Origin: an uncultured Lachnospiraceae bacterium
GTDB taxonomy: Bacteria > Bacillota > Clostridia > Lachnospirales > Lachnospiraceae
Assembly: GCA_944384155.1 (NCBI GenBank)
Contig: CALWSG010000063.1
Coordinates: 1-64,000, forward strand
Length of the DNA: 64,000 nucleotides
Reading direction: 5' to 3'
Position 1 is the stretch's first letter; each line of letters begins with the position of its first letter. This document shows, one piece after another, positions 2,301-39,496 of this stretch. The position numbers were made by a program, and so were the translations under genes. The notes below the pieces were generated by a model that was given only the letters and a program-made list of their open reading frames with translations, did not search any database and was not told the origin of the DNA.

Positions 2301-2662
2301 AGATAAAGAGAAATATGATTGTGTGGGCTGAATTAAAAAGTGGACTCAGGCATATACAAGCTGGAAGGAGACCATGTATTGTAATAAGCTGCGACAAAGC
2401 AAACGGAAAATCACCTGTATACACAGTTGTTCCGGGGACAACTAAGTTGAAAAAGGATTATATTCCAGTACATTTCAATATTGAGCCTTCAGAAATTAGA
2501 GGATTTTTAAGACATACAACAATGTTTTTACCGGAGCAGCTTGTCACAATAAATGAGGAACAGATAATACAGACTGCCGGGATGATTGTCAGCACAGATG
2601 CAATAAAAAAGGTTGATGCGATGTTAGTCAGACAGCTGCAGATTGGAGAATATGATGGATGA
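2297..2662 (+). CDS. MazF/PemK-like protein
   Basis: The 121-residue protein shows the PemK/MazF fold signature: an N-terminal strand with IVWAELKSGLRHIQAGRRPCIVIS, then TVVPGTT, then the late segment FLPEQLVTINEEQI. MazF homologues are sequence-specific endoribonucleases. The family position suggests RNA cleavage, but some element-borne members may act as regulators instead. It starts at GTG 2297 behind GAGGTGA and overlaps the upstream recombinase-like gene by four bases. No classical MazE-type antitoxin ORF precedes it. It overlaps xis slightly, so it belongs to the xis-int expression unit. Confidence 0.75.
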   Translation: MKIKRNMIVWAELKSGLRHIQAGRRPCIVISCDKANGKSPVYTVVPGTTKLKKDYIPVHFNIEPSEIRGFLRHTTMFLPEQLVTINEEQIIQTAGMIVSTDAIKKVDAMLVRQLQIGEYDG

Positions 2663-2882
2663 TGAAAATGAATTAGAGAATCAGAGTATAGATATTCCTA
2701 TATGGAAGCGATATTTGCTTTCTGTAACTGAAGCGGCACAGTTTTATCACATTGGTGAAAAGAGACTTAGACAAATTGTAGATATCCATCCAAATGGGGA
2801 GTTTTATCTGTTAGTAGGAAACAAAGTTTTGTTTAAGAAAGAGAAATTTGAGCAATTTCTGGCAGAGTCAACTGCAATTTAA
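2655..2882 (+). CDS. xis: Excisionase (Tn916 Xis-like)
   Basis: The protein of about 75 residues carries the Tn916 Xis-type winged-helix pattern: DIPIWKRYLLSVTEAAQFY, HIGEKRLRQIV, then GNKVLFKKEKFEQFL. Xis proteins bend att-site DNA and steer the integrase towards excision. It lies immediately before the integrase, the standard order. Starts at TTG 2643 or ATG 2652 are also possible; ATG 2655 has the best spacing from GGAG at 2645-2648. It overlaps the end of the MazF-like gene. Confidence 0.85.
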   Translation: MDDENELENQSIDIPIWKRYLLSVTEAAQFYHIGEKRLRQIVDIHPNGEFYLLVGNKVLFKKEKFEQFLAESTAI

Positions 2883-2963
2883 TATGTAAAGTAGTAGAAA
2901 AGGGGGCACAAATGTGGTACAATAACCATGCTAGGGCTCTCTTTTTTGAAAGGAGACAAAGCT

Positions 2964-4163
2964 ATGAGTGAGAAAAGACGAGATAATCGCAATAGAATTC
3001 TTCACGAAGGAGAGTACCAGAGAGCAGATGGACGTTATCGTTTTAGATATGTAGATATTCATGGAAATGAAGGGAATTTATATAGTTGGCGTTTGGACCA
3101 TAATGATCCTATACCTAAAGGAAAGAAAATGGAGCTTTCTTTAAGAGAAAAGGAAAAACAGCTGGAACAGGATATGTTTAACGGACTTGTTCCAGGAGGT
3201 GGAGGACTTACAGTTCTTGAATTAGTGGAGAAATATGTAAGTCTTAAAATAGGGGTCAGACAGAGTACTTATGCTGGTTATAAGACGGTAATTAATCTGC
3301 TGAAAAAAGATGATTTTGGCAAAAAAAGAATCGACAAAGTGAAATTATCGGATGCGAAAGCCTGGTTGATCAAGCTTCAGAGGGTAGATGGAAAAGGTTA
3401 TAGTTCAATTCATACTATCCGGGGAGTATTAAGACCGGCATTTCAGATGGCGGAAGAAGATGACTTGATTCGCAAAAATCCATTTGGCTTTGAACTGGTC
3501 AATGTTATTGTGAATGATAGTGTGAGAAGAGAAGCTGTCACAAGAAAGCAGGAGCGGGAATTTCTAAGATTCATAAAAGAAGATGCGCATTTTTGCAAGT
3601 ACTATGATGCAATATTTATTCTCTTTAACACAGGACTTCGTATATCAGAGTTCTGTGGGCTTACAAAATCAGATTTGGATTTTAAAAACAAAAGAATACG
3701 GGTAAATCATCAATTACAGAGAACAAGTCAGATGCAGTATATCATTGAAAAGCCTAAGACAGAAAGTGGCGAGAGATATGTTCCAATGTCTGATGAGGTG
3801 GTGGCTTGTTTCAAGAGAATACTTAAGGACAGGGTCAATCCCAAAGTTGAACCGATGGTTGATGGAATGACAGGATTTTTATTCCTTGATAAGAATGATA
3901 TGCCTATGGTGGCATTACATTGGGAAAAGTATTTCCAACATATTCGGGAAAAGTACAATAGCATATATAAGGTTCAGATGCCGCCGATTACACCACATGT
4001 GTGTCGCCATACATTTTGTTCTAATATGGCTAAGTCGGGAATGAATCCGAAGATGCTTCAGTATATTATGGGACACTCGGATATCAGTGTTACGATGAAT
4101 ACCTATACTCATGTTAAATTTCAGGATGCACAGGAAGATTTTCAAAAAGCAATTAATTCATAA
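2964..4163 (+). CDS. int: Tyrosine recombinase, Tn916-type integrase
   Basis: This 399-residue enzyme integrates and excises the element. It has an N-terminal arm-binding domain (about 10-75), a SAM-like core-binding domain (about 80-180), and a catalytic domain. The catalytic residues are visible: R226 in NTGLRISEF, the lysine in EKPKTESGER, H/R348 in HVCRHTF, the GHSD histidine, and nucleophile Y381 in MNTYTHV. The length matches Tn916 Int (about 405). Start ATG 2964 is chosen for the RBS AAAGGAG; an in-frame ATG at 2928 has none. An extended -10-like TGTGGTACAAT lies upstream near 2912-2922. The reading direction is outward, towards the right end. Confidence 0.95.
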   Translation: MSEKRRDNRNRILHEGEYQRADGRYRFRYVDIHGNEGNLYSWRLDHNDPIPKGKKMELSLREKEKQLEQDMFNGLVPGGGGLTVLELVEKYVSLKIGVRQSTYAGYKTVINLLKKDDFGKKRIDKVKLSDAKAWLIKLQRVDGKGYSSIHTIRGVLRPAFQMAEEDDLIRKNPFGFELVNVIVNDSVRREAVTRKQEREFLRFIKEDAHFCKYYDAIFILFNTGLRISEFCGLTKSDLDFKNKRIRVNHQLQRTSQMQYIIEKPKTESGERYVPMSDEVVACFKRILKDRVNPKVEPMVDGMTGFLFLDKNDMPMVALHWEKYFQHIREKYNSIYKVQMPPITPHVCRHTFCSNMAKSGMNPKMLQYIMGHSDISVTMNTYTHVKFQDAQEDFQKAINS

Positions 4164-16012: not shown

Positions 16013-17476
16013 ATGATAAAAAGTAATCATTATATATGCAGCAAAAGCCAGATGATATTGTACGGTGTAACGGACAGCAGTGATACTACAGAGGATTACA
16101 CCTTGGAAATGAAGGTTGAGGAAGCATTAAAGGGAGGAGCAACCTTTATACAGCTTCGGGAAAAAAATATGGACACATTAAAGCTGGCAGAACTTGGAAA
16201 AAGGATAAAAAAAATATGTGACAAATATAATGCTCCAATGGTAATAGATGACAATGTAGAAGCGGCAAGACTTTGCGGTGCAGACGGGGTACATGTAGGT
16301 CAGAATGATTTAAGTCCCGATAAGGTAAGAGAGATACTGGGAAATAATGCTATAGTAGGAGTGACGGCAAAAACTCCTAAGCAGGCGGTGGAAGCAGAGC
16401 TTAAAGGTGCAAGCTATATTGGGACAGGAGCGGCATTTCCAACAGATACCAAAAAGGATACTTATGTTATATCCCATGATGCAATAAGGGCTATTTGCGA
16501 AAGCACAAAGATTCCTGTGGTTGCAATAGGAGGAATAACATATGATAATGTAGATAAGCTTAAGGGAACAGGCATAGATGGTGTTGCTGTGGTTTCGGCG
16601 ATATTTAATAAAAAGGATATAGAGCATGAAACACAAAAGCTGAAAAAAAAGGTTATAAATATATTGGAGGAAAAGATGAAAAAGGTTTTGACAATAGCAG
16701 GCTCTGACTGTAGCGGGGGCGCGGGAATACAGGCTGATTTAAAGACAATGACAGCACATAAGGTGTATGGGATGAGTGTTATAACTGCACTGACGGCCCA
16801 AAATACAACAGGTGTTTACGGAATAATGGAGGCTGAACCTGAATTTGTGGCAAAACAAATAGACTGTGTGTTTACTGATATTGAACCTGATGCAGTTAAA
16901 ATAGGAATGGTATCAAATAAGGATATTATAAAAGCAATAGCATTAAAGTTAAGAGAATACAAGGCGAAAAATATAGTGGCAGATCCTGTTATGATTTCAA
17001 CAAGTGGAAAATCACTTATAAACAGTGATGCAAGGGACACACTTATAAATGTTCTGCTTCCTATTGCAGCAGTTATAACACCTAACATACCGGAGGCAGA
17101 AGCCTTAAGCGGTATATCAATAACTGATGATAAGCTTATGGAAAAGGCGGCTAAAATAATAGGGGAAAAAACGGGAACGGCTGTACTTATTAAGGGAGGA
17201 CATTCTGTTAATGATGCAAATGATTTATTATATTCAGAGGGAAAGCTTACATGGTTTTACGGCAAAAAAATAGAAAATAACAACACCCACGGAACAGGTT
17301 GTACATTATCCTCTGCAATAGCAAGTAATCTTGCATTGGGATATACTATGGAAGATAGTATAAGAAATGCCAAGGACTATATAACAAGTGCAATAGGGGC
17401 AGGTCTTAATCTTGGAGCAGGCAGCGGACCGCTAAATCATATGAGCTGCATAACATCACGGTTTGGAGAACGGTAA
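16013..17476 (+). CDS. ThiE-ThiD fusion: thiamine-phosphate synthase / HMP(-P) kinase
   Basis: The 487-residue protein joins two thiamine enzymes. Residues 1-~215 are Thi[40 protein letters not shown] and VAIGGI. Residues 222-487 are Thi[50 protein letters not shown] and the anion hole [15 protein letters not shown]. It would phosphorylate HMP twice and couple HMP-PP to thiazole phosphate. A GGAGG at 16666-16670 and an ATG at 16676 sit exactly at the ThiD boundary, so ThiD could also be made alone. It is followed four bases later by a tenI-like gene. Confidence 0.93.
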
Positions 17477-20929: not shown

Positions 20930-21901
20930 TTATAATTCCATAAATGTGGCACCCCATGTCAAACCGCCGCCAAAGCCTGACAAAACAATGTTTTTTGCAT
21001 CTTTAAGCTTGCCGGCTCTGTTTAGCTCATCTAAAAGAATAGGTATGCTTGCAGCAGAGGTGTTGCCGTAATTATGGAGATTTACAGGTATTTTATCCTC
21101 ACAGACATGAAGTCTTTTGGCAACGGAAGAAATAATTCTTACATTTGCCTGATGAAGAATGTAATAATCTATATCATCTACGTTTTTTTCTGATTTGTCA
21201 AGTACCTGTCTTATACATTCAGGTACCTTTGATACGGCAAATTTAAAAACCTCTTGTCCATTCATTTTCATATAGTAATCATCTGCTATAAGATTTGTTG
21301 CGTCAGAATTTACCAGAAAATTTTTAAGAACGGTTCCGCCACCTGTAAGAACACTGCCTTTTATTCCATCAGACCCTGTAACGGCAGTATATTTTTTTGA
21401 ATTATCAGAAACGGCTACCACTGCACCGGCACCGTCGCCAAAAAGAACACAGGTAGTTCTGTCAGACCAGTCAATAGTTCTTGATACGGTTTCCGCACCT
21501 ATCACCAGAATAGTATTATACATACCGGAAGTAAGAAAAGCATTTGCAGTGTTTAAAGCAAATAAAAATCCGGAGCATGCAGCGTTTAAATCAAAACAGG
21601 TGGCATTGACGGCACCTGTTTTTTCCTGTATGCGGCAGGCTGTGTTTGGAAGCATGGAATCGGGAGTCATTGAAGCTAAAATTATTAAATCAACAGCTTC
21701 CGGTTTTATGCCTGCATTGTCCAATGCGTTAAGGGCAGCCTTTGTGCCTAAGTCGGCAGAGGTTTCTCCTTCAGATATGTGGCGGCACTTGATACCTGTT
21801 CTTGTACTTATCCATTCATCACTTGTATCCACGATATTTGATAAATCATCATTAGTTACAATCTTTAAGGGAGTGCAGCTTCCTGTACCTATAATTCGCA
21901 T
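20930..21901 (-). CDS. fabH: Beta-ketoacyl-ACP synthase III
   Basis: The 323-residue enzyme condenses acetyl-CoA (or a branched starter) with malonyl-ACP to start each fatty-acid chain. It has the active-site cysteine in FDLNAACSGFLFAL, the histidine in YILHQANVRI and the asparagine in NLHNYGNTSAASIP, the full Cys-His-Asn triad of FabH. The start at 21901 is chosen because GAGGATTAT precedes the ATG; a longer in-frame ORF lacks an RBS. It is split off from the main fatty-acid cluster at 29.4 kb but has the same type of promoter-operator (21987-22029). Confidence 0.95.
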   Translation of the reverse strand: MRIIGTGSCTPLKIVTNDDLSNIVDTSDEWISTRTGIKCRHISEGETSADLGTKAALNALDNAGIKPEAVDLIILASMTPDSMLPNTACRIQEKTGAVNATCFDLNAACSGFLFALNTANAFLTSGMYNTILVIGAETVSRTIDWSDRTTCVLFGDGAGAVVAVSDNSKKYTAVTGSDGIKGSVLTGGGTVLKNFLVNSDATNLIADDYYMKMNGQEVFKFAVSKVPECIRQVLDKSEKNVDDIDYYILHQANVRIISSVAKRLHVCEDKIPVNLHNYGNTSAASIPILLDELNRAGKLKDAKNIVLSGFGGGLTWGATFMEL

Positions 21902-21986
21902 ATAATCCTCATTTCTGCGTGTTTTACGCATAAAATATGTGAAAAAAGCACCAACTAAATTAGACTTTTTTCACCTTTGCAAAAAA

Positions 21987-29631: not shown

Positions 29632-29653
29632 GCATAAAATTGCAAATGCCGGC

Positions 29654-29719
29654 AGTGAAAATTTAGTTTTCACTCTTGATTATTAAAATTTATGGCACTG
29701 CTTTATGGCAGTGCTTTTT
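29654..29719 (+). terminator. Two hairpins between acpP and fabD, second a probable partial terminator
   Basis: AGTGAAAA (29654-29661) pairs with TTTTCACT (29667-29674). GCACTGC (29695-29701) pairs with GCAGTGC (29708-29714) and is followed by TTTTT. No promoter is obvious before fabD, so incomplete termination is likely. Confidence 0.7.
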
Positions 29720-29747
29720 ATAAAAAGAAATAAAAGGAGTTAAGCTT

Positions 29748-30671
29748 ATGAGTACAGCATTTATATTCCCGGGTCAGGGGGCACAGACAGTAGGCATGGG
29801 TAAGGATTTTTACGAAAATTCATCCCTTAGCAAGGAAATATATGACAGGGCAACGGAGCTTTTGGGCATTGACATGAAGGCACTTTGCTTTGAAGAGAAT
29901 GACAATATTAATATTACTGAATATACTCAGGCTGCATTAGTCACAACTTCAGTGGCAATGCTTAAAGTAATCTTAGACAGGGGAATAAAGCCGGATGTAT
30001 GTGCAGGCTTAAGTCTCGGAGAATATTGTGCTTTAGTTGCGTCAAATGCCATGAGCTTTGATGATGCGGTAAAAACCGTAAGACAGCGAGGAATACTTAT
30101 GCAGGAGGCGGTTCCTCTTGGTGTAGGTGCAATGTGTGCAGTAATAGGATTAGACGGACAGGTTATTGCAGATGTATGTGACGGGATAGACGGTGTATCA
30201 GTTGCAAATTACAACTGTCCGGGACAGATAGTTATATCGGGCAGGAAAGAGGCAGTGGAGCAGGCTGCCGGGGAGCTTAAGGAGGCAGGTGCAAGGAGAT
30301 GCGTTATGCTTAATGTAAGCGGACCGTTTCATTCTGCCATGCTTGAGGAGGCAGGAGAAAAGCTTTATGAGGTATTAAAGAATGTAGAGCTAAAAGAATT
30401 TAATATTCCTTATGTCACAAATGTTACGGCAGAATATGTTACAGATACAAAGGAAATTAAGGAATTGCTGAAAAAACAGGTATCATCTTCCGTGAAATGG
30501 CAGCAGAGTGTGGAAAATATGATAGCCAACGGAGTAGATACATTTATTGAGATAGGACCAAACAAAACCTTATCCTCATTTGTAAAGAAAATAAATAAAG
30601 AGGTTAAGATTTATAATATAGAAAAATGGGAAGATGTGGATAGGCTGGTTTCAGAGCTTAATCCACAGTAG
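29748..30671 (+). CDS. fabD: Malonyl-CoA:ACP transacylase
   Basis: The 307-residue enzyme loads malonate from CoA to ACP. It begins with the family motif FIFPGQGAQTVGMG, has the nucleophile serine in AGLSLGEYCAL and the histidine in VSGPFHSAML, and ends with FIEIGPNKTLSSFVKK. Length is normal. RBS AAAGGAG precedes it. It is the second gene of the fatty-acid cluster. Confidence 0.95.
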   Translation: MSTAFIFPGQGAQTVGMGKDFYENSSLSKEIYDRATELLGIDMKALCFEENDNINITEYTQAALVTTSVAMLKVILDRGIKPDVCAGLSLGEYCALVASNAMSFDDAVKTVRQRGILMQEAVPLGVGAMCAVIGLDGQVIADVCDGIDGVSVANYNCPGQIVISGRKEAVEQAAGELKEAGARRCVMLNVSGPFHSAMLEEAGEKLYEVLKNVELKEFNIPYVTNVTAEYVTDTKEIKELLKKQVSSSVKWQQSVENMIANGVDTFIEIGPNKTLSSFVKKINKEVKIYNIEKWEDVDRLVSELNPQ

Positions 30672-30725: not shown

Positions 30726-31469
30726 ATGTTTAAAGGAAAAATAGCACTTGTAACAGGCTCAGGACAGGGAATTGGAAAGGAAATAGCATTAAGGCTGGCA
30801 AAAGGAGGAGCAACACTTATAATTAATTATGTGGGACCGTCAGACGGAGCAAATCAGGTGGTTGAAACAATTAAGGCAAACGGCGGAGAGGCTGTTGCTT
30901 ATGAGTGCAATGTGGCAGATTTTGAAGCTGTTGAAAAGATGGTTGGAGATGTTTTGGAAAAGTACGGAAGAATAGATATTCTTGTAAATAATGCGGGAAT
31001 CACAAGGGATAATCTGATATTAAAAATGTCAGAGGCAGATTTTGATGCCGTTATAAACGTAAATCTTAAGGGAACATTTAATGCAACAAAGGCTGTCACA
31101 AAGACAATGATGAAGCAAAGATACGGAAGAATTATTAACATTGCAAGTATTGTCGGTGTTATTGGAAACGCAGGTCAGGCAAATTACTGTGCGTCAAAGG
31201 CAGGCATTATAGGAATGACAAAGTCTGTTGCAAGGGAGCTTGCGTCAAGAAATGTAACTGTAAATGCTGTGGCACCGGGATTTATAGATACAGATATGAC
31301 AAAGGTGCTGCCTGAAAATGTTAAGGAATCACTTCTTGCACAGATACCTATGAAAAAGCTTGGAAGTGTGGAAGATATTGCCAATGCTGTGGAATTTCTG
31401 GCTAAGGAGGAAAGCGGATATATTACGGGACAGGTAATTAATGTAAACGGCGGAATGGCAATGCAGTAA
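30726..31469 (+). CDS. fabG: 3-oxoacyl-ACP reductase
   Basis: The 247-residue short-chain dehydrogenase has the NADPH site VTGSGQGIGKEIA, the LVNNAGITRD motif, and the Ser-Tyr-Lys triad in NIASIVGVIGNAGQANYCASKAG. It ends with GYITGQVINVNGGMAMQ. It reduces the beta-keto group after each condensation. RBS GAAAGGAA lies upstream. Placement between fabD and fabF is the usual Firmicutes order. Confidence 0.96.
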   Translation: MFKGKIALVTGSGQGIGKEIALRLAKGGATLIINYVGPSDGANQVVETIKANGGEAVAYECNVADFEAVEKMVGDVLEKYGRIDILVNNAGITRDNLILKMSEADFDAVINVNLKGTFNATKAVTKTMMKQRYGRIINIASIVGVIGNAGQANYCASKAGIIGMTKSVARELASRNVTVNAVAPGFIDTDMTKVLPENVKESLLAQIPMKKLGSVEDIANAVEFLAKEESGYITGQVINVNGGMAMQ

Positions 31470-31510: not shown

Positions 31511-32749
31511 ATGAGCAGAAGAGTTGTTGTTACGGGAATGGGAGCAGTTACACCTATAGGTATAGGTGTTGAAAATTTCTGGAATGGAGTAAAGGAAAAC
31601 AAGGTTGGAATTAAGGTTATTGACCGTTTTGATATTACGGAATTTAAGGCAAAGGTAGCAGGTCAGATAGATGATTTCAATCCAAAGGATTATATGGATG
31701 TAAAATCGGCAAAAAGAATGGAAAAGTTTTGCCAGTATGCCGTTGTGGCAGCCATGGAGGCAGTAAAGGACGCAGGGCTTGACATTGAAGCAGAAGACCC
31801 TTATATGGTAGGTGTTTCAGTTGGCTCAGGCGTAGGAAGCCTTGGAGTGGTTGAGGACAGCCACAAAAAATATCTTGAAAAAGGTCCGTCAAGGATTAAT
31901 CCTCTGCTTGTTCCTCTTATGATAACAAATATGGCAGCAGGAAATGTATCTATACAGCTTGGAGCAAAGGGTAAATCCATTAATGTTGTGACAGCCTGTG
32001 CAACAGGAACACATTCAATAGGAGAGGCATACAGAAGTATACAGTGTGGAGAGGCTGACGTAATGATAGCGGGAGGAACGGAGTCCTGCATTACACCTAT
32101 AGGAGTAGGCGGATTTGCAGCACTTACGGCGCTCAGTACAACGGAAGACCCTTTAGATGCCTGCAAGCCTTTTGACAAGGACAGAAACGGCTTTGTTATG
32201 GGAGAAGGTTCAGGTATTGTAATATTAGAGGATTTAGAGCATGCAAAGAAAAGAGGTGCAAAGATATACGGAGAAGTAGTAGGGTACGGAGCCACATCAG
32301 ATGCTTATCATATTACTTCACCGGCAGAGGACGGTTCAGGAGCTGCAAGGGCTATGACAAATGCCATGAAAGAGGCAGGTATTACGCCGGAACAGATAGA
32401 CTACATTAATGCTCACGGAACAAGCACACACCACAACGACTTATTTGAGACAAGAGCTATTAAGCTTGCGTTTAAAGACGCAGCTTACAAGCCGAAAATC
32501 AGCTCAACAAAGTCAATGGTAGGTCATCTTTTGGGAGCAGCAGGTGCAGTGGAATTTATTACATGTATAAAGTCCGTTACCGACAGCTATGTACATCCTA
32601 ACGTAGGCTTTAAAGAGGCTGAGGAGGAAATGGATCTTGATTATGTAAAGGATAAGGGAATAAATATGGAAGTAAACTATGCCTTAAGCAATTCACTTGG
32701 CTTTGGCGGTCATAATGCAACATTAATAGTTAAGAAATATGAGGCTTAG
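31511..32749 (+). CDS. fabF: Beta-ketoacyl-ACP synthase II
   Basis: The 412-residue condensing enzyme has the Cys-His-His triad: C in NVVTACATGTHSIGEA, H in NAHGTSTHHND, and H in KSMVGHLLGAAG. It elongates the chain after FabH starts it. The C-terminal SLGFGGHNATLIVKKY is typical. It is followed after 23 bases by accB, so elongation and malonyl-CoA supply genes are co-transcribed. Confidence 0.96.
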   Translation: MSRRVVVTGMGAVTPIGIGVENFWNGVKENKVGIKVIDRFDITEFKAKVAGQIDDFNPKDYMDVKSAKRMEKFCQYAVVAAMEAVKDAGLDIEAEDPYMVGVSVGSGVGSLGVVEDSHKKYLEKGPSRINPLLVPLMITNMAAGNVSIQLGAKGKSINVVTACATGTHSIGEAYRSIQCGEADVMIAGGTESCITPIGVGGFAALTALSTTEDPLDACKPFDKDRNGFVMGEGSGIVILEDLEHAKKRGAKIYGEVVGYGATSDAYHITSPAEDGSGAARAMTNAMKEAGITPEQIDYINAHGTSTHHNDLFETRAIKLAFKDAAYKPKISSTKSMVGHLLGAAGAVEFITCIKSVTDSYVHPNVGFKEAEEEMDLDYVKDKGINMEVNYALSNSLGFGGHNATLIVKKYEA

Positions 32750-32772
32750 CAGTGGAGGGAAAGGACAAGGAT

Positions 32773-33240
32773 ATGGAATTTCAGCAAATTATAGAATTAA
32801 TAAAAACAGTGTCAGATTCAAAACTGACCTCTTTTTCCTATGAAAAAGAGGATAAAAATAATCCACAGATTTTTGAGAAGATAAGCATAAAGAAGGATGG
32901 AGGAAAAATGCCACAGGTTCAGGTTGCAGGAATCCCTCAGACTGTAGTACAGTCACAGGCAATTTCTCAATTATCTGAGGAGGAAGCTGTATTAAAGGAT
33001 GAGAATGTTAAGATAGTAACATCTCCGCTGGTGGGAACATTTTACAGTGCCGCATCGCCTGAGGACGAGCCTTTTGTTAAGGTTGGAGATAAGGTGAGCA
33101 AAGGACAAAAGCTTGGAATTATTGAAGCAATGAAGCTTATGAATGACATTGAAAGTGATTACGACGGCGAAATTATAGAAATTATGGTATCGAACGAAAA
33201 TATGGTAGAGTACGGACAGCCATTATTTAAGATTAAGTAA
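32773..33240 (+). CDS. accB: Biotin carboxyl carrier protein of acetyl-CoA carboxylase
   Basis: The 155-residue protein has a variable N-terminal part, a Q/V/P-rich linker and a C-terminal biotinyl domain (about 80-155), with the biotin lysine in IIEAMKLMNDIE. It carries carboxybiotin between AccC and AccDA. ATG 32773 follows AAGGACAAGG and fits the family N-terminus (MEFQQIIELIKTV); a GTG at 32752 would extend it by seven residues without a good RBS. Confidence 0.95.
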   Translation: MEFQQIIELIKTVSDSKLTSFSYEKEDKNNPQIFEKISIKKDGGKMPQVQVAGIPQTVVQSQAISQLSEEEAVLKDENVKIVTSPLVGTFYSAASPEDEPFVKVGDKVSKGQKLGIIEAMKLMNDIESDYDGEIIEIMVSNENMVEYGQPLFKIK

Positions 33241-33251
33241 GGAGAAAATAT

Positions 33252-33674
33252 ATGTTAGGAATTAAGGAAATTCAGGAAATTATACCTCACAGACATCCGT
33301 TTTTACTGGTGGATAAAATCGAGGAGCTTGTTCCGGGAGAAAAGGCAGTGGGATATAAGGCAATAACCTATGACGAGTCATTTTTTAATGGACATTTTCC
33401 TCAGGAGCCTGTTATGCCGGGAGTGTTAATGATAGAGGCACTGGCACAGGTAGGTGCAGTTGCAATCTTAAGTATGGAGGAAAACAAGGGGAAGACGGCT
33501 TACTTTGGTTCAATTAATTCTGCAAAGTTTAAGAAAAAGGTAGTGCCGGGAGACATGTTAAAGCTTGAATGTGAGATTATAAAGAGAAAAGGTCCAATAG
33601 GAGTAGGAAAGGCTGTTGCATCTGTTGACGGGAAAGTGGCAGTTGTGGCAGAGCTGACATTTGCAGTTAATTAA
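33252..33674 (+). CDS. fabZ: 3-hydroxyacyl-ACP dehydratase
   Basis: The 140-residue hot-dog-fold enzyme has the catalytic histidine in FNGHFPQEPVMPG and the glutamate in MIEALAQVGAVA, with IPHRHPFLLVDKI at the N-terminus. It removes water from 3-hydroxyacyl-ACP. It begins 11 bases after accB, with RBS AAGGAGAA. Only one dehydratase is present in the cluster; whether FabZ also isomerises here cannot be told from sequence. Confidence 0.96.
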   Translation: MLGIKEIQEIIPHRHPFLLVDKIEELVPGEKAVGYKAITYDESFFNGHFPQEPVMPGVLMIEALAQVGAVAILSMEENKGKTAYFGSINSAKFKKKVVPGDMLKLECEIIKRKGPIGVGKAVASVDGKVAVVAELTFAVN

Positions 33675-35052: not shown

Positions 35053-36825
35053 ATGTTGAAGTTTAAGAAACAGACATATATCTCAATAGCGAGAAATGAG
35101 GCATTAAACAAGGAAGAAAGTATAGGGGAAATCAGGAGAAATATGGGCAGCGGTGCTTCGGTAAAAACGGAAAACAATGCACCGTCTGTTCCGGAGGGAC
35201 TCTTTATAAAGTGCGGAAACTGCGGAGAAGCAGTTTACGCAGATGATGTGGAGGAAAATAATCATACATGTCCCAAATGCGGATATAATTTTCGAATAGG
35301 TGCATATCAGAGACTGGAAATGGTTCTTGATGAGGGAAGCTTTACAGAGTGGGATAAAGAGCTTACCACAAATAACCCTCTAAAATTTAAGGGATATGAG
35401 GAAAAGCTTACCATTCTTAAGTCGGATACAGGGCTTAGCGAGGCTGTTATAACCGGAAAGGGAAAAATTCACGGAATGAATCTTGCCATAGGCATGTGCG
35501 ACTCCAGATTCCTTATGGGAAGCATGGGGGAGGTAGTAGGTGAGAGAATCACCAGAATGGTTGAGAATGCCACAAGGGAAAAGCTTCCTGTGGTTATATT
35601 CGCCTGCTCGGGAGGTGCCAGAATGCAGGAGGGAATAGTATCCTTAATGCAGATGGCAAAAACTTCACAGGCATTAAAACGCCACAGTCAGGCAGGACAG
35701 CTTTATGTATCCGTGCTTACTGACCCTACAACAGGGGGAGTAACGGCAAGCTTTGCCATGCTGGGAGATATTATACTGGCGGAGCCGGGAGCACTTATAG
35801 GCTTTGCCGGACCGAGAGTTATTGAACAGACAATAGGACAGAAACTGCCAAAAGGCTTTCAGCGTTCTGAATTTTTACTGGAAAAGGGATTAATAGACGG
35901 TATAGTAAAAAGAAGTGAGCTTCGTCATGTACTTGGTGAAATTATACGTATGCATACTGTGAAAACAGACAGAATTAATACCTATGACCATTACATTAAG
36001 AAAAATGCTCCTATAGCAGCGATTCCTTTAAAGGACAGCAGCCTGATGAATGCATGGGACAGAGTACAAATATCAAGAAGTGCTGAAAGGCCTACGGCAC
36101 TTGATTATATATCAATTATATTTAAAGACTTTATAGAGCTTCACGGTGACAGAGCCTACAGAGATGACGGAGCTATTGTGGGAGGCATAGCAACCGTTGG
36201 CGGCAAGCCTGTAACGGTAATTGCACAGCAGAAGGGAAAGAATACAAAGGAAAACATATTAAGAAACTTTGGTATGCCTTATCCTGAAGGTTACAGAAAA
36301 GCCTTAAGGCTTATGAAGCAGGCTGAGCAGTTTAACCGTCCTATTATTTGTTTTGTAGATACTCCGGGAGCATTCTGCGGCATAGAGGCAGAGGAAAGAG
36401 GACAGGGAGAGGCAATAGCAAGAAATCTGTATGAAATGTCAGGACTTACTGTTCCTATAGTAACCATTGTAATTGGTGAAGGGGGAAGCGGAGGAGCCTT
36501 GGCAATGGCAGTATCAAATGAGGTATGGATGCTTGAAAATGCCACATATTCCATATTGTCACCTGAGGGCTTTGCATCAATTTTGTGGAAGGACAGCAAG
36601 CGTGCAAGTGAGGCGGCAGAAGTTATGAGGATAACGGCAAGTGATTTATTAAAGCTGAATATAATAGAAAAGGTTATCCCGGAAACAGTGCCTGCATGTG
36701 AGGATAATATATATGATTTAGCAGGATATATGAAAAACTATATAAAAGAATTTTTATCAAAATATAAGTCAAAAAGCAGAGAAGAAATTGCAAATGAAAG
36801 GTATGACAGGTTCCGCAGCTTTTAA
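35053..36825 (+). CDS. Acetyl-CoA carboxylase carboxyltransferase, beta-alpha fusion (AccD-AccA)
   Basis: The 590-residue protein joins both carboxyltransferase subunits. The N-terminal part is AccD, with a four-cysteine zinc ribbon (C54, C57, C73, C76), then [22 protein letters not shown] and [12 protein letters not shown]. From about residue 345 it is AccA ([47 protein letters not shown]). Order and length equal AccD plus a shortened AccA. It transfers CO2 from biotin to acetyl-CoA to give malonyl-CoA. The first 40 residues are a lysine/glutamate-rich extension before the zinc ribbon. Confidence 0.95.
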
Positions 36826-36855: not shown

Positions 36856-37932
36856 ATGGAGCTAAAGGCATTAAAAATAGGTGATTTGACAGCTAAAATT
36901 CCTATAGTACAGGGAGGAATGGGAGTAGGAATCAGCCTTTCGGGACTGGCGGGAAGCGTGGCTGCCGCAGGGGGAGTAGGTATTATATCTACGGCACAGA
37001 TAGGTTATAAGGATCCGGATTATGATAAAAAGCCTTTGGATGTTAATTTAAAGGCAATAAAAAAATATGTGGATAAGGCAAGGGAAATAGCAAATGGCGG
37101 TGTTATAGGCGTAAACATAATGGTGGCAACAAAGTATTATGAGGAATATGTAAAGGCGGCAGTAAAAGCGGGAGTAGACCTTATAGTGTCAGGAGCAGGT
37201 CTTCCCACAACACTTCCTGAGCTTGTGAAAAATACAAAGACAAAGATAGCACCTATAGTGTCATCAATAAAGTCAGCAAAGGTTATATGCAAGCTGTGGG
37301 ATAAGCATTATGGACAGACGCCTGATATGGTAGTTATAGAGGGGCCGAAAGCAGGGGGACATCTTGGATTCACCAAAGAGCAGCTAAATACCATAACAGA
37401 TGAGGAGTATGACAGGGAAATACTGGGGATAAGAGAAATAGTAAAAGAATACAGTGACAAATACGAGAAGCATATACCGGTCATATTTGGAGGGGGAATA
37501 TATGACAGAGATGATATGATGAGGTATATAAATATGGGGCTTGACGGTGTGCAGATAGGCTCAAGATTTGTCACTACATATGAGTGCGATGCGGCAGACG
37601 AGTATAAGCAGAGTTACATTAATGCAAAGAAAGAAGATATAAGAATCGTTAAAAGCCCTGTGGGTATGCCGGGACGTGCCATATATAATTCATTTATGAA
37701 AAGAACAGAGACAGAGAGCTTTAAGCTAAAAACATGTCATCAGTGTATAAGCACCTGTAATCAGAAGGATATACCATACTGTATAGCAGATGCACTTGTA
37801 AATGCAGCAAAAGGAAATACAGACAATGCACTTCTTTTTTGCGGAGCCAATGCTTATAAGGCTCAAAAGCTTGAGCATGTAAGTGATATTTTTGAACAGC
37901 TTACTGATGGATTAGTGAAAAATACAATTTGA
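36856..37932 (+). CDS. NMO/FabK-family flavin oxidoreductase, candidate enoyl-ACP reductase
   Basis: The 358-residue TIM-barrel protein has the family FMN-binding signs: PIVQGGMGVGISLSGLA, GVNIMVA, VIEGPKAGGHLG, IFGGGIYDRDD and GVQIGSRFVTT. FabK enoyl reductases and nitronate monooxygenases share this fold. It is the last gene of the fatty-acid cluster, and no fabI, fabL, fabV or typical fabK is in it. Unlike classical FabK (about 320 residues) it has a C-terminal cysteine cluster (C294-x2-C297-x3-C301-x7-C309). It may reduce enoyl-ACP; nitronate oxidation is the alternative. Confidence 0.75.
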   Translation: MELKALKIGDLTAKIPIVQGGMGVGISLSGLAGSVAAAGGVGIISTAQIGYKDPDYDKKPLDVNLKAIKKYVDKAREIANGGVIGVNIMVATKYYEEYVKAAVKAGVDLIVSGAGLPTTLPELVKNTKTKIAPIVSSIKSAKVICKLWDKHYGQTPDMVVIEGPKAGGHLGFTKEQLNTITDEEYDREILGIREIVKEYSDKYEKHIPVIFGGGIYDRDDMMRYINMGLDGVQIGSRFVTTYECDAADEYKQSYINAKKEDIRIVKSPVGMPGRAIYNSFMKRTETESFKLKTCHQCISTCNQKDIPYCIADALVNAAKGNTDNALLFCGANAYKAQKLEHVSDIFEQLTDGLVKNTI

Positions 37933-37980
37933 CAAAATATAATATATGGTCTAAACTATAAAAGTAAAAATTAATAAAGA

Positions 37981-38075
37981 GTGCAGGGGTACTGTGCATC
38001 AGTGAATTATTACATTTGGCACAGTTGAGAGTGACCCTTAGAACCTGTTAGTTAATACTATCGTAGGGAGCATAT
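37981..38075 (+). promoter_or_regulatory. TPP riboswitch (THI element)
   Basis: The sequence shows the conserved THI-box parts in order: AGGGGTAC, GAGAGTGACCCTTAGAACCTG, and CGTAGGGAGCA near 38062-38072. It senses thiamine pyrophosphate. The terminator that follows makes transcriptional control of thiC likely. Confidence 0.93.
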
Positions 38076-38087
38076 ATTTAAGAATAT

Positions 38088-38182: not shown

Positions 38183-39496
38183 ATGAGACAGTATTGTACC
38201 CAGATGGAAGCTGCAAAGAAAGGTATTATAACACCTGAGATGGAAATCGTAGCAGCTAAGGAAAATATGAATGTAGATGAGTTAATGGAGCTTGTGGCGA
38301 AGGGACAGGTGGCAATACCGGCCAATATTAATCATAAGTCGTTAAGTCCCGAGGGAATAGGAACAGGTCTTAAGACAAAGATAAATGTAAATCTTGGAAT
38401 ATCGGGAGACTGCAAGGATTATTCCATTGAGATGGAAAAGGTAGATATGGCAATTAAGTTTGGTGCCGAGGCAATTATGGATTTAAGCAATTACGGAAAG
38501 ACAAATACATTCAGAAAGCAGTTAATAGAAAAGTCTCCTGCAATGATAGGAACGGTTCCAATGTATGATGCAATAGGATATCTTGAAAAGGATTTACTTG
38601 AGATTACGGCACAGGATTTTTTAAAGGTAGTAAGGGCTCACGCTGAGGAGGGCGTGGATTTTATGACTATTCATGCAGGCATTAACAAAAGAGCCATTGA
38701 GTCCTTTAAGAGAGAGGGCAGAAGAATGAACATAGTCTCAAGGGGAGGCTCTCTTTTATTTGCATGGATAGAGATGACGGGAAATGAAAATCCTTTCTAT
38801 GAGTATTATGATGAGGTTCTTGATATTTTAAGAGAATATGATGTTACAATAAGTCTTGGAGATGCATTAAGACCGGGCTGCATAGATGACAGTACGGATG
38901 CGGGACAGATATCCGAGCTTATAGAGCTTGGTAATCTTACAAAAAGAGCATGGGAGAAGGATGTGCAGGTTATGGTTGAGGGACCGGGCCATATGGCATT
39001 AAATGAGATAGCAGCAAATATGCAGCTTCAAAAGCGAATATGCCATAATGCACCATTTTATGTACTGGGACCATTGGTTACAGATATTGCACCGGGATAT
39101 GACCACATTACATCAGCAATAGGAGGAGCCATAGCTGCCGCCAACGGAGCAGACTTTTTATGCTATGTTACACCGGCAGAGCATTTAAGGCTTCCTGATA
39201 CAGATGACGTAAAGGAAGGAATAGTAGCAAGCAAAATTGCAGCCCATGCGGCAGATATAGCTAAGGGAATAAAAGGTGCAAGAGATATTGATAATAAAAT
39301 GTCAGATGCAAGACATAAGCTTGATTGGGAGGGAATGTTTAAGTATGCCATTGATTCTGAAAAGGCAAGAAGGTATTACGAGAGTACTCCTGTGTCAGAG
39401 CGTCATACATGCTCTATGTGTGGAAAAATGTGTGCTGTCAGAACAACAAACATGATTCTTGAGGGCAAGAAGGTAGAGTTTTGTACCGAAAAATAA
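38183..39496 (+). CDS. thiC: Phosphomethylpyrimidine synthase
   Basis: The 437-residue radical-SAM enzyme converts aminoimidazole ribotide to HMP-P for thiamine. It has [39 protein letters not shown] and the C-terminal Fe-S cluster site C-x2-C-x4-C in [12 protein letters not shown]. Length is that of the short bacterial form. RBS AAGGAGAGAAGC precedes the ATG. It is alone under the TPP riboswitch; HMP-P it makes feeds the ThiD half of the fusion at 16013. Confidence 0.96.

What the first reader, a model, noticed from the sequence alone, without database searches (positions are those of the whole stretch)
36856..37932. NMO-family protein with a C-x2-C-x3-C-x7-C cluster as the cluster's only enoyl reductase candidate
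The cluster lacks fabI, fabL, fabV and a typical fabK, yet ends with an NMO-fold flavoprotein carrying four C-terminal cysteines (C294, C297, C301, C309), a spacing reminiscent of Fe-S sites in other flavin reductases. If it reduces enoyl-ACP, it would be an unusual enoyl reductase type and relevant for FabI/FabK inhibitor resistance.
Basis: partly seen in the sequence, partly recalled or inferred. Interest (0 to 1): 0.6.

Follow-up and report, generated by a model that had tools for sequence, protein, structure and literature searches.

The report
Anaerobe's FabX-type iron-sulfur lipid enzyme
The gene is not the cell's enoyl reductase (a FabV elsewhere in the genome is the likely one) but a relative of Helicobacter FabX, an iron-sulfur flavoprotein that puts the double bond into fatty acids, and it is a good candidate for the enzyme that clostridia use for this without oxygen and that a 2009 study left as unknown.

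Summary
The ORF and its four cysteines (C294, C297, C301, C309) are exactly as described. The protein is a FabX-type flavoprotein. Its best structural match is Helicobacter pylori FabX (40% identity; AlphaFold model, Z 48.8, rmsd 1.9 Å over 345 residues; FabK only Z 35). The cysteines align with FabX's four [4Fe-4S] ligands, and H169 with its catalytic H182. All five residues are conserved in the FabX-type homologues aligned; FabK lacks the cysteines.

The enoyl-reductase reading is not supported. The genome has no FabK, and none of its four short-chain dehydrogenases looked like FabI/FabL to me, but it encodes a FabV (G000:C54). In 42 of 54 FabX-bearing family genomes FabK is present as well, often in the same operon. 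In 10 of the 12 without FabK there is a FabV (3/42 otherwise; P=7e-7); the other two look like assembly gaps.

The genome has no second FabZ/FabA, no FabM or other crotonase, and no desaturase. The protein is therefore the best candidate for cis-double-bond introduction, a step published as done by a "novel and unknown enzyme" in clostridia. H. pylori FabX needs O2, so here I infer O2-independent trans-2 to cis-3 isomerisation of enoyl-ACP. Identity is well supported; activity is inferred and untested.

The parts
36856..37932 (+). fabX-type gene, 358 aa FMN/[4Fe-4S] NMO-fold protein, last gene of the fab/acc operon
37360..37362 (+). codon of H169, aligned with FabX catalytic His182
   Evidence: invariant in 61/61 aligned sequences, FabK included; invariant in 38 FabX-type rows
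37735..37737 (+). codon of C294, aligned with FabX Fe-S ligand C300
   Evidence: present in all 53 FabX-type rows, absent in 8 FabK rows
37744..37746 (+). codon of C297, aligned with FabX Fe-S ligand C304
37756..37758 (+). codon of C301, aligned with FabX Fe-S ligand C308
37780..37782 (+). codon of C309, aligned with FabX Fe-S ligand C320
29398..29631 (+). acpP, acyl carrier protein (first gene of the operon)
   Evidence: order conserved in relatives
29632..29747 (+). acpP-fabD gap; relatives carry fabK exactly here, this genome does not
29748..30671 (+). fabD
   Evidence: order
30726..31469 (+). fabG
31511..32749 (+). fabF
   Evidence: order
32752..33240 (+). accB
33252..33674 (+). fabZ, the only FabA/FabZ-family gene of the genome
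33695..35038 (+). accC
35053..36825 (+). accD-accA in one ORF (590 aa)

Best explanation
The gene encodes a FabX-type flavoprotein that makes unsaturated fatty acids. It has a TIM barrel with FMN, a catalytic histidine (H169) and a small C-terminal subdomain whose four cysteines should hold a [4Fe-4S] cluster next to the acyl tunnel. It most likely takes medium-chain acyl groups (around C10, perhaps C12) on AcpP and delivers the cis-3-enoyl-ACP that FabF elongates. In H. pylori this starts from saturated decanoyl-ACP and needs O2 to take the electrons. The family here consists of gut anaerobes, so I infer that the clostridial enzyme mainly isomerises the trans-2-enoyl-ACP from FabZ to cis-3-enoyl-ACP with no net electron transfer, H169 moving the proton and the flavin/Fe-S pair poising the site. 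Ordinary enoyl reduction is done by FabV, encoded elsewhere. Shown here: family, ligand and catalytic residues, operon, FabV present, no other known double-bond enzyme. Inferred: Fe-S and FMN content, acyl-ACP substrate, isomerase direction.
For: Best sequence hit in the PDB is H. pylori FabX (E 1.6e-72; FabK 1e-20), 40% identity. AlphaFold model pLDDT 94; Z 48.8, rmsd 1.9 Å, 345 residues against FabX, Z 35 against FabK (Foldseek). Residues matching FabX N99, E175, H182, Q240, S273 and C300/C304/C308/C320 are kept; the ACP-contact position of R164 is His here and mostly Lys in relatives. FabX and FabK split at a 100/100 branch with HpFabX on the FabX side. [quoted passage not shown] Own genome: one FabZ-type dehydratase, no crotonase/FabM family, no FA desaturase. 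Literature: clostridia make UFAs but lack FabA/FabM/FabN and C. acetobutylicum FabZ is no isomerase (PMC2700279). Fusobacterium nucleatum carries FabK plus a FabX homologue, and fabX overexpression partly relieves FabK inhibition (PMC11091888), which fits use of trans-2-enoyl-ACP. Lachnospiraceae do contain cis-C16:1/C18:1 (PMC12578346, PMC5741734).
Against: No activity, metal or flavin data. Published FabX is an O2-dependent dehydrogenase, and isomerase-only action of any FabX has not been shown in what I read. No fatty-acid profile is known for this organism, and I could not match FabX presence with UFA content species by species. Many family genomes have FabK without a FabX hit (43 of 120), so either they make no UFAs or another route exists. 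HpFabX sits on a long branch (1.56), so shared function is not certain.
Confidence: 0.6

Rival explanations
1. True backtracking as in H. pylori: the enzyme dehydrogenates saturated decanoyl-ACP and isomerises it to cis-3, with the electrons passed through FMN and [4Fe-4S] to an acceptor other than O2.
For: All FabX catalytic and Fe-S residues are kept; the cluster lies near the surface in FabX and could meet a carrier (PMC8626469).
Against: No electron acceptor other than O2 was found for FabX (PMC8626469). The acyl/enoyl couple is near 0 mV, poorly matched to NAD+ or ferredoxin in a fermenter (general knowledge). No recurring redox partner gene was seen next to fabX where it stands alone (one rubrerythrin neighbour only).
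Confidence: 0.2
2. One reading: it is the enoyl-ACP reductase of the cluster, a new Fe-S type.
For: No FabK in the genome and none in the cluster; four SDRs found, none read by me as FabI or FabL. Weak relief of FabK inhibition by fabX overexpression in Fusobacterium (PMC11091888) would also fit a slow reductase.
Against: A FabV (best match FabV, E 8e-127) is encoded elsewhere and the genome has no crotonase, so a CoA-pathway role for it is unlikely. FabX-type genes coexist with FabK in 42 of 54 genomes, and FabV fills in for FabK in 10 of 12 of the rest. The two exceptions look like assembly gaps: the contig starts inside fabD (L080) and acpP runs into a 5'-truncated fabX (L081). [quoted passage not shown]
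Confidence: 0.1
3. A nitronate monooxygenase or general flavin oxidoreductase that happens to sit in the operon.
For: Pfam hit is NMO (PF03060, E 6e-49).
Against: Bona fide NMOs match far more weakly than FabX and FabK; the Fe-S cysteines and fab-operon linkage are conserved over many genera.
Confidence: 0.04

Closest known systems
Helicobacter pylori FabX (PDB 7e1q, 9lt5)
   Same: Fold, FMN-site residues, catalytic His, four Fe-S cysteines, length, role in the fatty-acid pathway (inferred here)
   Different: 40% identity; cysteine spacing C-x2-C-x3-C-x7-C here against C-x3-C-x3-C-x11-C; T340 beside FMN is Cys here (C329); R164 of the ACP site is His here (mostly Lys in relatives); H. pylori has FabI and uses O2
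Fusobacterium nucleatum FabX homologue C4N14_08920 (PMC11091888)
   Same: FabX-type gene in an anaerobe that also has a separate enoyl reductase
   Different: 51% identical to HpFabX (window protein 40%); its enoyl reductase is FabK, here FabV; activity not measured in the passages read
FabK (TIGR03151)
   Same: NMO fold, FMN, catalytic His, fab-operon gene
   Different: No Fe-S cysteines, NAD(P)H-binding part instead, separate clade (100/100); coexists with FabX-type genes
[quoted passage not shown]
   Same: Proposed reaction
   Different: Unrelated crotonase fold without flavin or Fe-S (general knowledge); no crotonase-family protein in this genome

Membership tests
FabX | NMO-type TIM barrel with FMN-site residues (N99, E175, Q240, T243) | tested here: met
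   N87, E162, Q233 identical, S236 for T243; model Z 48.8 against FabX
FabX | Catalytic His182 held by Ser273 | tested here: met
   H169 and S267
FabX | Four C-terminal cysteine ligands of [4Fe-4S] | tested here: met
   C294/C297/C301/C309 align with C300/C304/C308/C320; spacing differs
FabX | ACP-contact residues (K152, R160, R164, T130) | tested here: inconclusive
   tallied R164 (H151 here; K, H or R in nearly all FabX-type relatives) and T130 (T118 kept here, variable in relatives). K139 for K152 and L147 for R160 are read off the pairwise alignment
FabX | Groups with FabX against FabK | tested here: met
   100/100 branch, 100% of 200 bootstraps; HpFabX branch is long; only FabK was used as the other group
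FabX | Acyl-ACP dehydrogenase/isomerase activity, O2 as acceptor | not testable with these tools
   needs enzyme assay
FabK enoyl-ACP reductase | TIGR03151 score above curated cut-off | tested here: not met
   121 bits against 453; 119 in the genome scan
FabK enoyl-ACP reductase | Sole enoyl reductase of the genome | tested here: not met
   FabV encoded at G000:C54
FabK enoyl-ACP reductase | Enoyl-ACP reduction with NAD(P)H | not testable with these tools
   needs enzyme assay

The most novel reading that the evidence does not exclude
FabX-type proteins of clostridia are O2-independent flavin/[4Fe-4S] isomerases that turn trans-2- into cis-3-enoyl-ACP without net electron transfer. They would be the unidentified double-bond enzyme of the anaerobic pathway first proposed from work on Clostridium.
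Probability: 0.48. Interest if true: 0.82.

Novelty: new variant of a known kind. Interest (0 to 1): 0.62.

Why it matters
A 2009 study concluded that clostridia introduce the double bond of unsaturated fatty acids by 'a novel and unknown enzyme' (PMC2700279). An operon-borne FabX-type gene, found in many gut Lachnospiraceae and other Bacillota, makes that question testable with one knockout or one complementation. It also bears on drug claims: FabX has been proposed as an H. pylori target that spares the microbiota because homologues above 50% identity are rare in gut bacteria (PMC8626469, PMC12079444). More distant FabX-type genes (the window's is 40% identical to HpFabX) with the Fe-S cysteine cluster are present in Blautia, Dorea, Coprococcus comes and Faecalicatena. 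No paper linking FabX with clostridia was found in the held open-access library, but subscription literature was not searchable.

Tried and rejected
Enoyl reductase role: rejected as the main function (FabV present, FabK coexistence). FabK or FabI/FabL elsewhere: FabK none; the SDR hits were read by eye and not run against a dedicated FabI model. The other NMO-family hits of the genome are IMP dehydrogenase, dihydroorotate dehydrogenase, HisF and a tRNA-dihydrouridine synthase-like protein by my reading of their sequences. A redox partner beside stand-alone fabX genes: no consistent neighbour. Species-by-species link between FabX and measured UFA content: paper searches gave no matched species. 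The genome-contig scan kept only the best 80 loci, so it does not measure how widespread the family is. Three FabK rows dropped out of the tree for short extraction.

Full report
What is there. [quoted passage not shown] The next feature is a TPP riboswitch (37975-38086) before thiC.

What it is. Pfam gives NMO; NCBIfam's FabK model scores 121 bits, far below its cut-off of 453. Among solved structures the best match by sequence is H. pylori FabX (E 1.6e-72), with FabKs at about 1e-20. FabX is an FMN protein of the NMO family whose C-terminal subdomain holds a [4Fe-4S] cluster on C300, C304, C308 and C320, and it makes the first unsaturated intermediate, cis-3-decenoyl-ACP (PMC8626469). The window's four cysteines align with these four and H169 with catalytic H182. 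Besides the window, 61 sequences were aligned with HpFabX or fetched from the family; the FabX-type ones (53) have all four cysteines and the FabKs (8) have none, while the His is in all. The AlphaFold model (mean pLDDT 94) matches FabX at Z 48.8, rmsd 1.9 Å over 345 residues, and FabK at Z 35 (Foldseek TM 0.9 against 0.7). A tree separates FabX-type proteins, H. pylori FabX included, from FabK by a 100/100 branch; HpFabX is a long branch and no other NMO group was included.

Differences from FabX. Spacing is C-x2-C-x3-C-x7-C instead of C-x3-C-x3-C-x11-C. Among 109 homologues pooled from the genome contigs and phylum searches, 91 show the x2-x3-x7 form and 18 the x3-x3-x7 form. The FMN neighbour T340 is Cys (C329) here and in most of the family alignment. 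R164, which binds ACP in FabX, is His here and mostly Lys in relatives.

Why not the enoyl reductase. In 120 genomes of the family, one per genus, I scored FabK and FabX-type genes with the FabK model and FabV with PF12241. FabX-type genes occur in 54; 42 of these also have FabK. In 29 of the 60 loci I fetched (chosen because they hold one of the two genes) both lie in the same operon, mostly in the order acpP-fabK-fabD-...-accDA-fabX. Of the 12 genomes with FabX but no FabK, 10 have FabV, against 3 of the 42 with both (P = 7e-7; genomes are related, so the P value overstates independence). The two remaining genomes look like assembly problems: in one the contig begins inside fabD (L080), in the other acpP runs straight into a 5'-truncated fabX (L081). 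In FabK-less operons, this window's included, fabK is missing exactly between acpP and fabD. The window's genome has a FabV of 387 aa at C54 whose best structural match is FabV (E 8e-127; trans-2-enoyl-CoA reductases score lower). It has no crotonase-family protein, so a butyryl-CoA pathway role for that protein is unlikely. In one Clostridium contig fabX and fabV are neighbours (L165).

Why unsaturated fatty acids. The genome has a single FabA/FabZ-family protein, the operon's FabZ, no FabM-type protein and no fatty-acid desaturase of the PF00487 family. Clostridia make cis-unsaturated fatty acids, but C. acetobutylicum lacks FabA, FabM and FabN and its FabZ cannot isomerise; the authors concluded that a novel, unknown enzyme must exist (PMC2700279). 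A FabX homologue in the anaerobe F. nucleatum, which also has FabK, partly relieves FabK inhibition when overexpressed (PMC11091888). Some Lachnospiraceae have large amounts of cis-C16:1 and cis-C18:1 (PMC12578346, PMC5741734); whether those species carry fabX was not tested.

Mechanism. H. pylori FabX needs O2 to reoxidise its flavin, while the isomerisation step itself does not need O2 (PMC8626469). An O2-dependent step cannot serve an obligate anaerobe. The simplest reading is that the clostridial enzyme takes trans-2-enoyl-ACP from FabZ and moves the double bond to cis-3 without net electron transfer. Backtracking with another electron acceptor remains possible. Both are inference; nothing here measures activity, cofactors or substrate.

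Limits. Absences rest on family searches of a draft genome in 63 contigs (99.96% complete by the tool's figure). SDRs were judged by eye. Some FabX-type hits were partial and were classed by position and length. The open-access library holds no paper on FabX in clostridia; a statement in subscription literature cannot be excluded.

Noticed in passing
G000:C54:84329-85033 (L044): FabV-type enoyl reductase gene outside the fab operon; the likely replacement of FabK
   Followed up: yes
29694-29715: Terminator-like hairpin in the acpP-fabD gap, where relatives carry fabK; may lower expression of the genes after acpP
   Followed up: no
37975-38086: TPP riboswitch directly after fabX, before thiC (38183-39496)
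   Followed up: partly
35053-36825: accD and accA in one reading frame (590 aa); relatives show a similarly joined match
   Followed up: no
20930-21931: fabH lies alone on the minus strand, 7.5 kb before the operon; many relatives have it at the head or end of the operon
   Followed up: no
L165:1472-2539 and 2611-3843: fabX and fabV adjacent in an uncultured Clostridium contig
   Followed up: partly
L205, L208, L210, L071, L072: fabK and fabX next to each other between fabH and fabD in several genomes, as two separate genes
   Followed up: partly
phylum search: A second NMO-type group of about 320 aa scores 220-290 bits against the FabX profile; not examined for cysteines
   Followed up: no
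8-83: HTH-XRE RNA (Rfam RF02923) upstream of an XRE-type regulator
   Followed up: no
16013-17476: thiE and thiD domains in one 487 aa ORF (by reading of the sequence)
   Followed up: no
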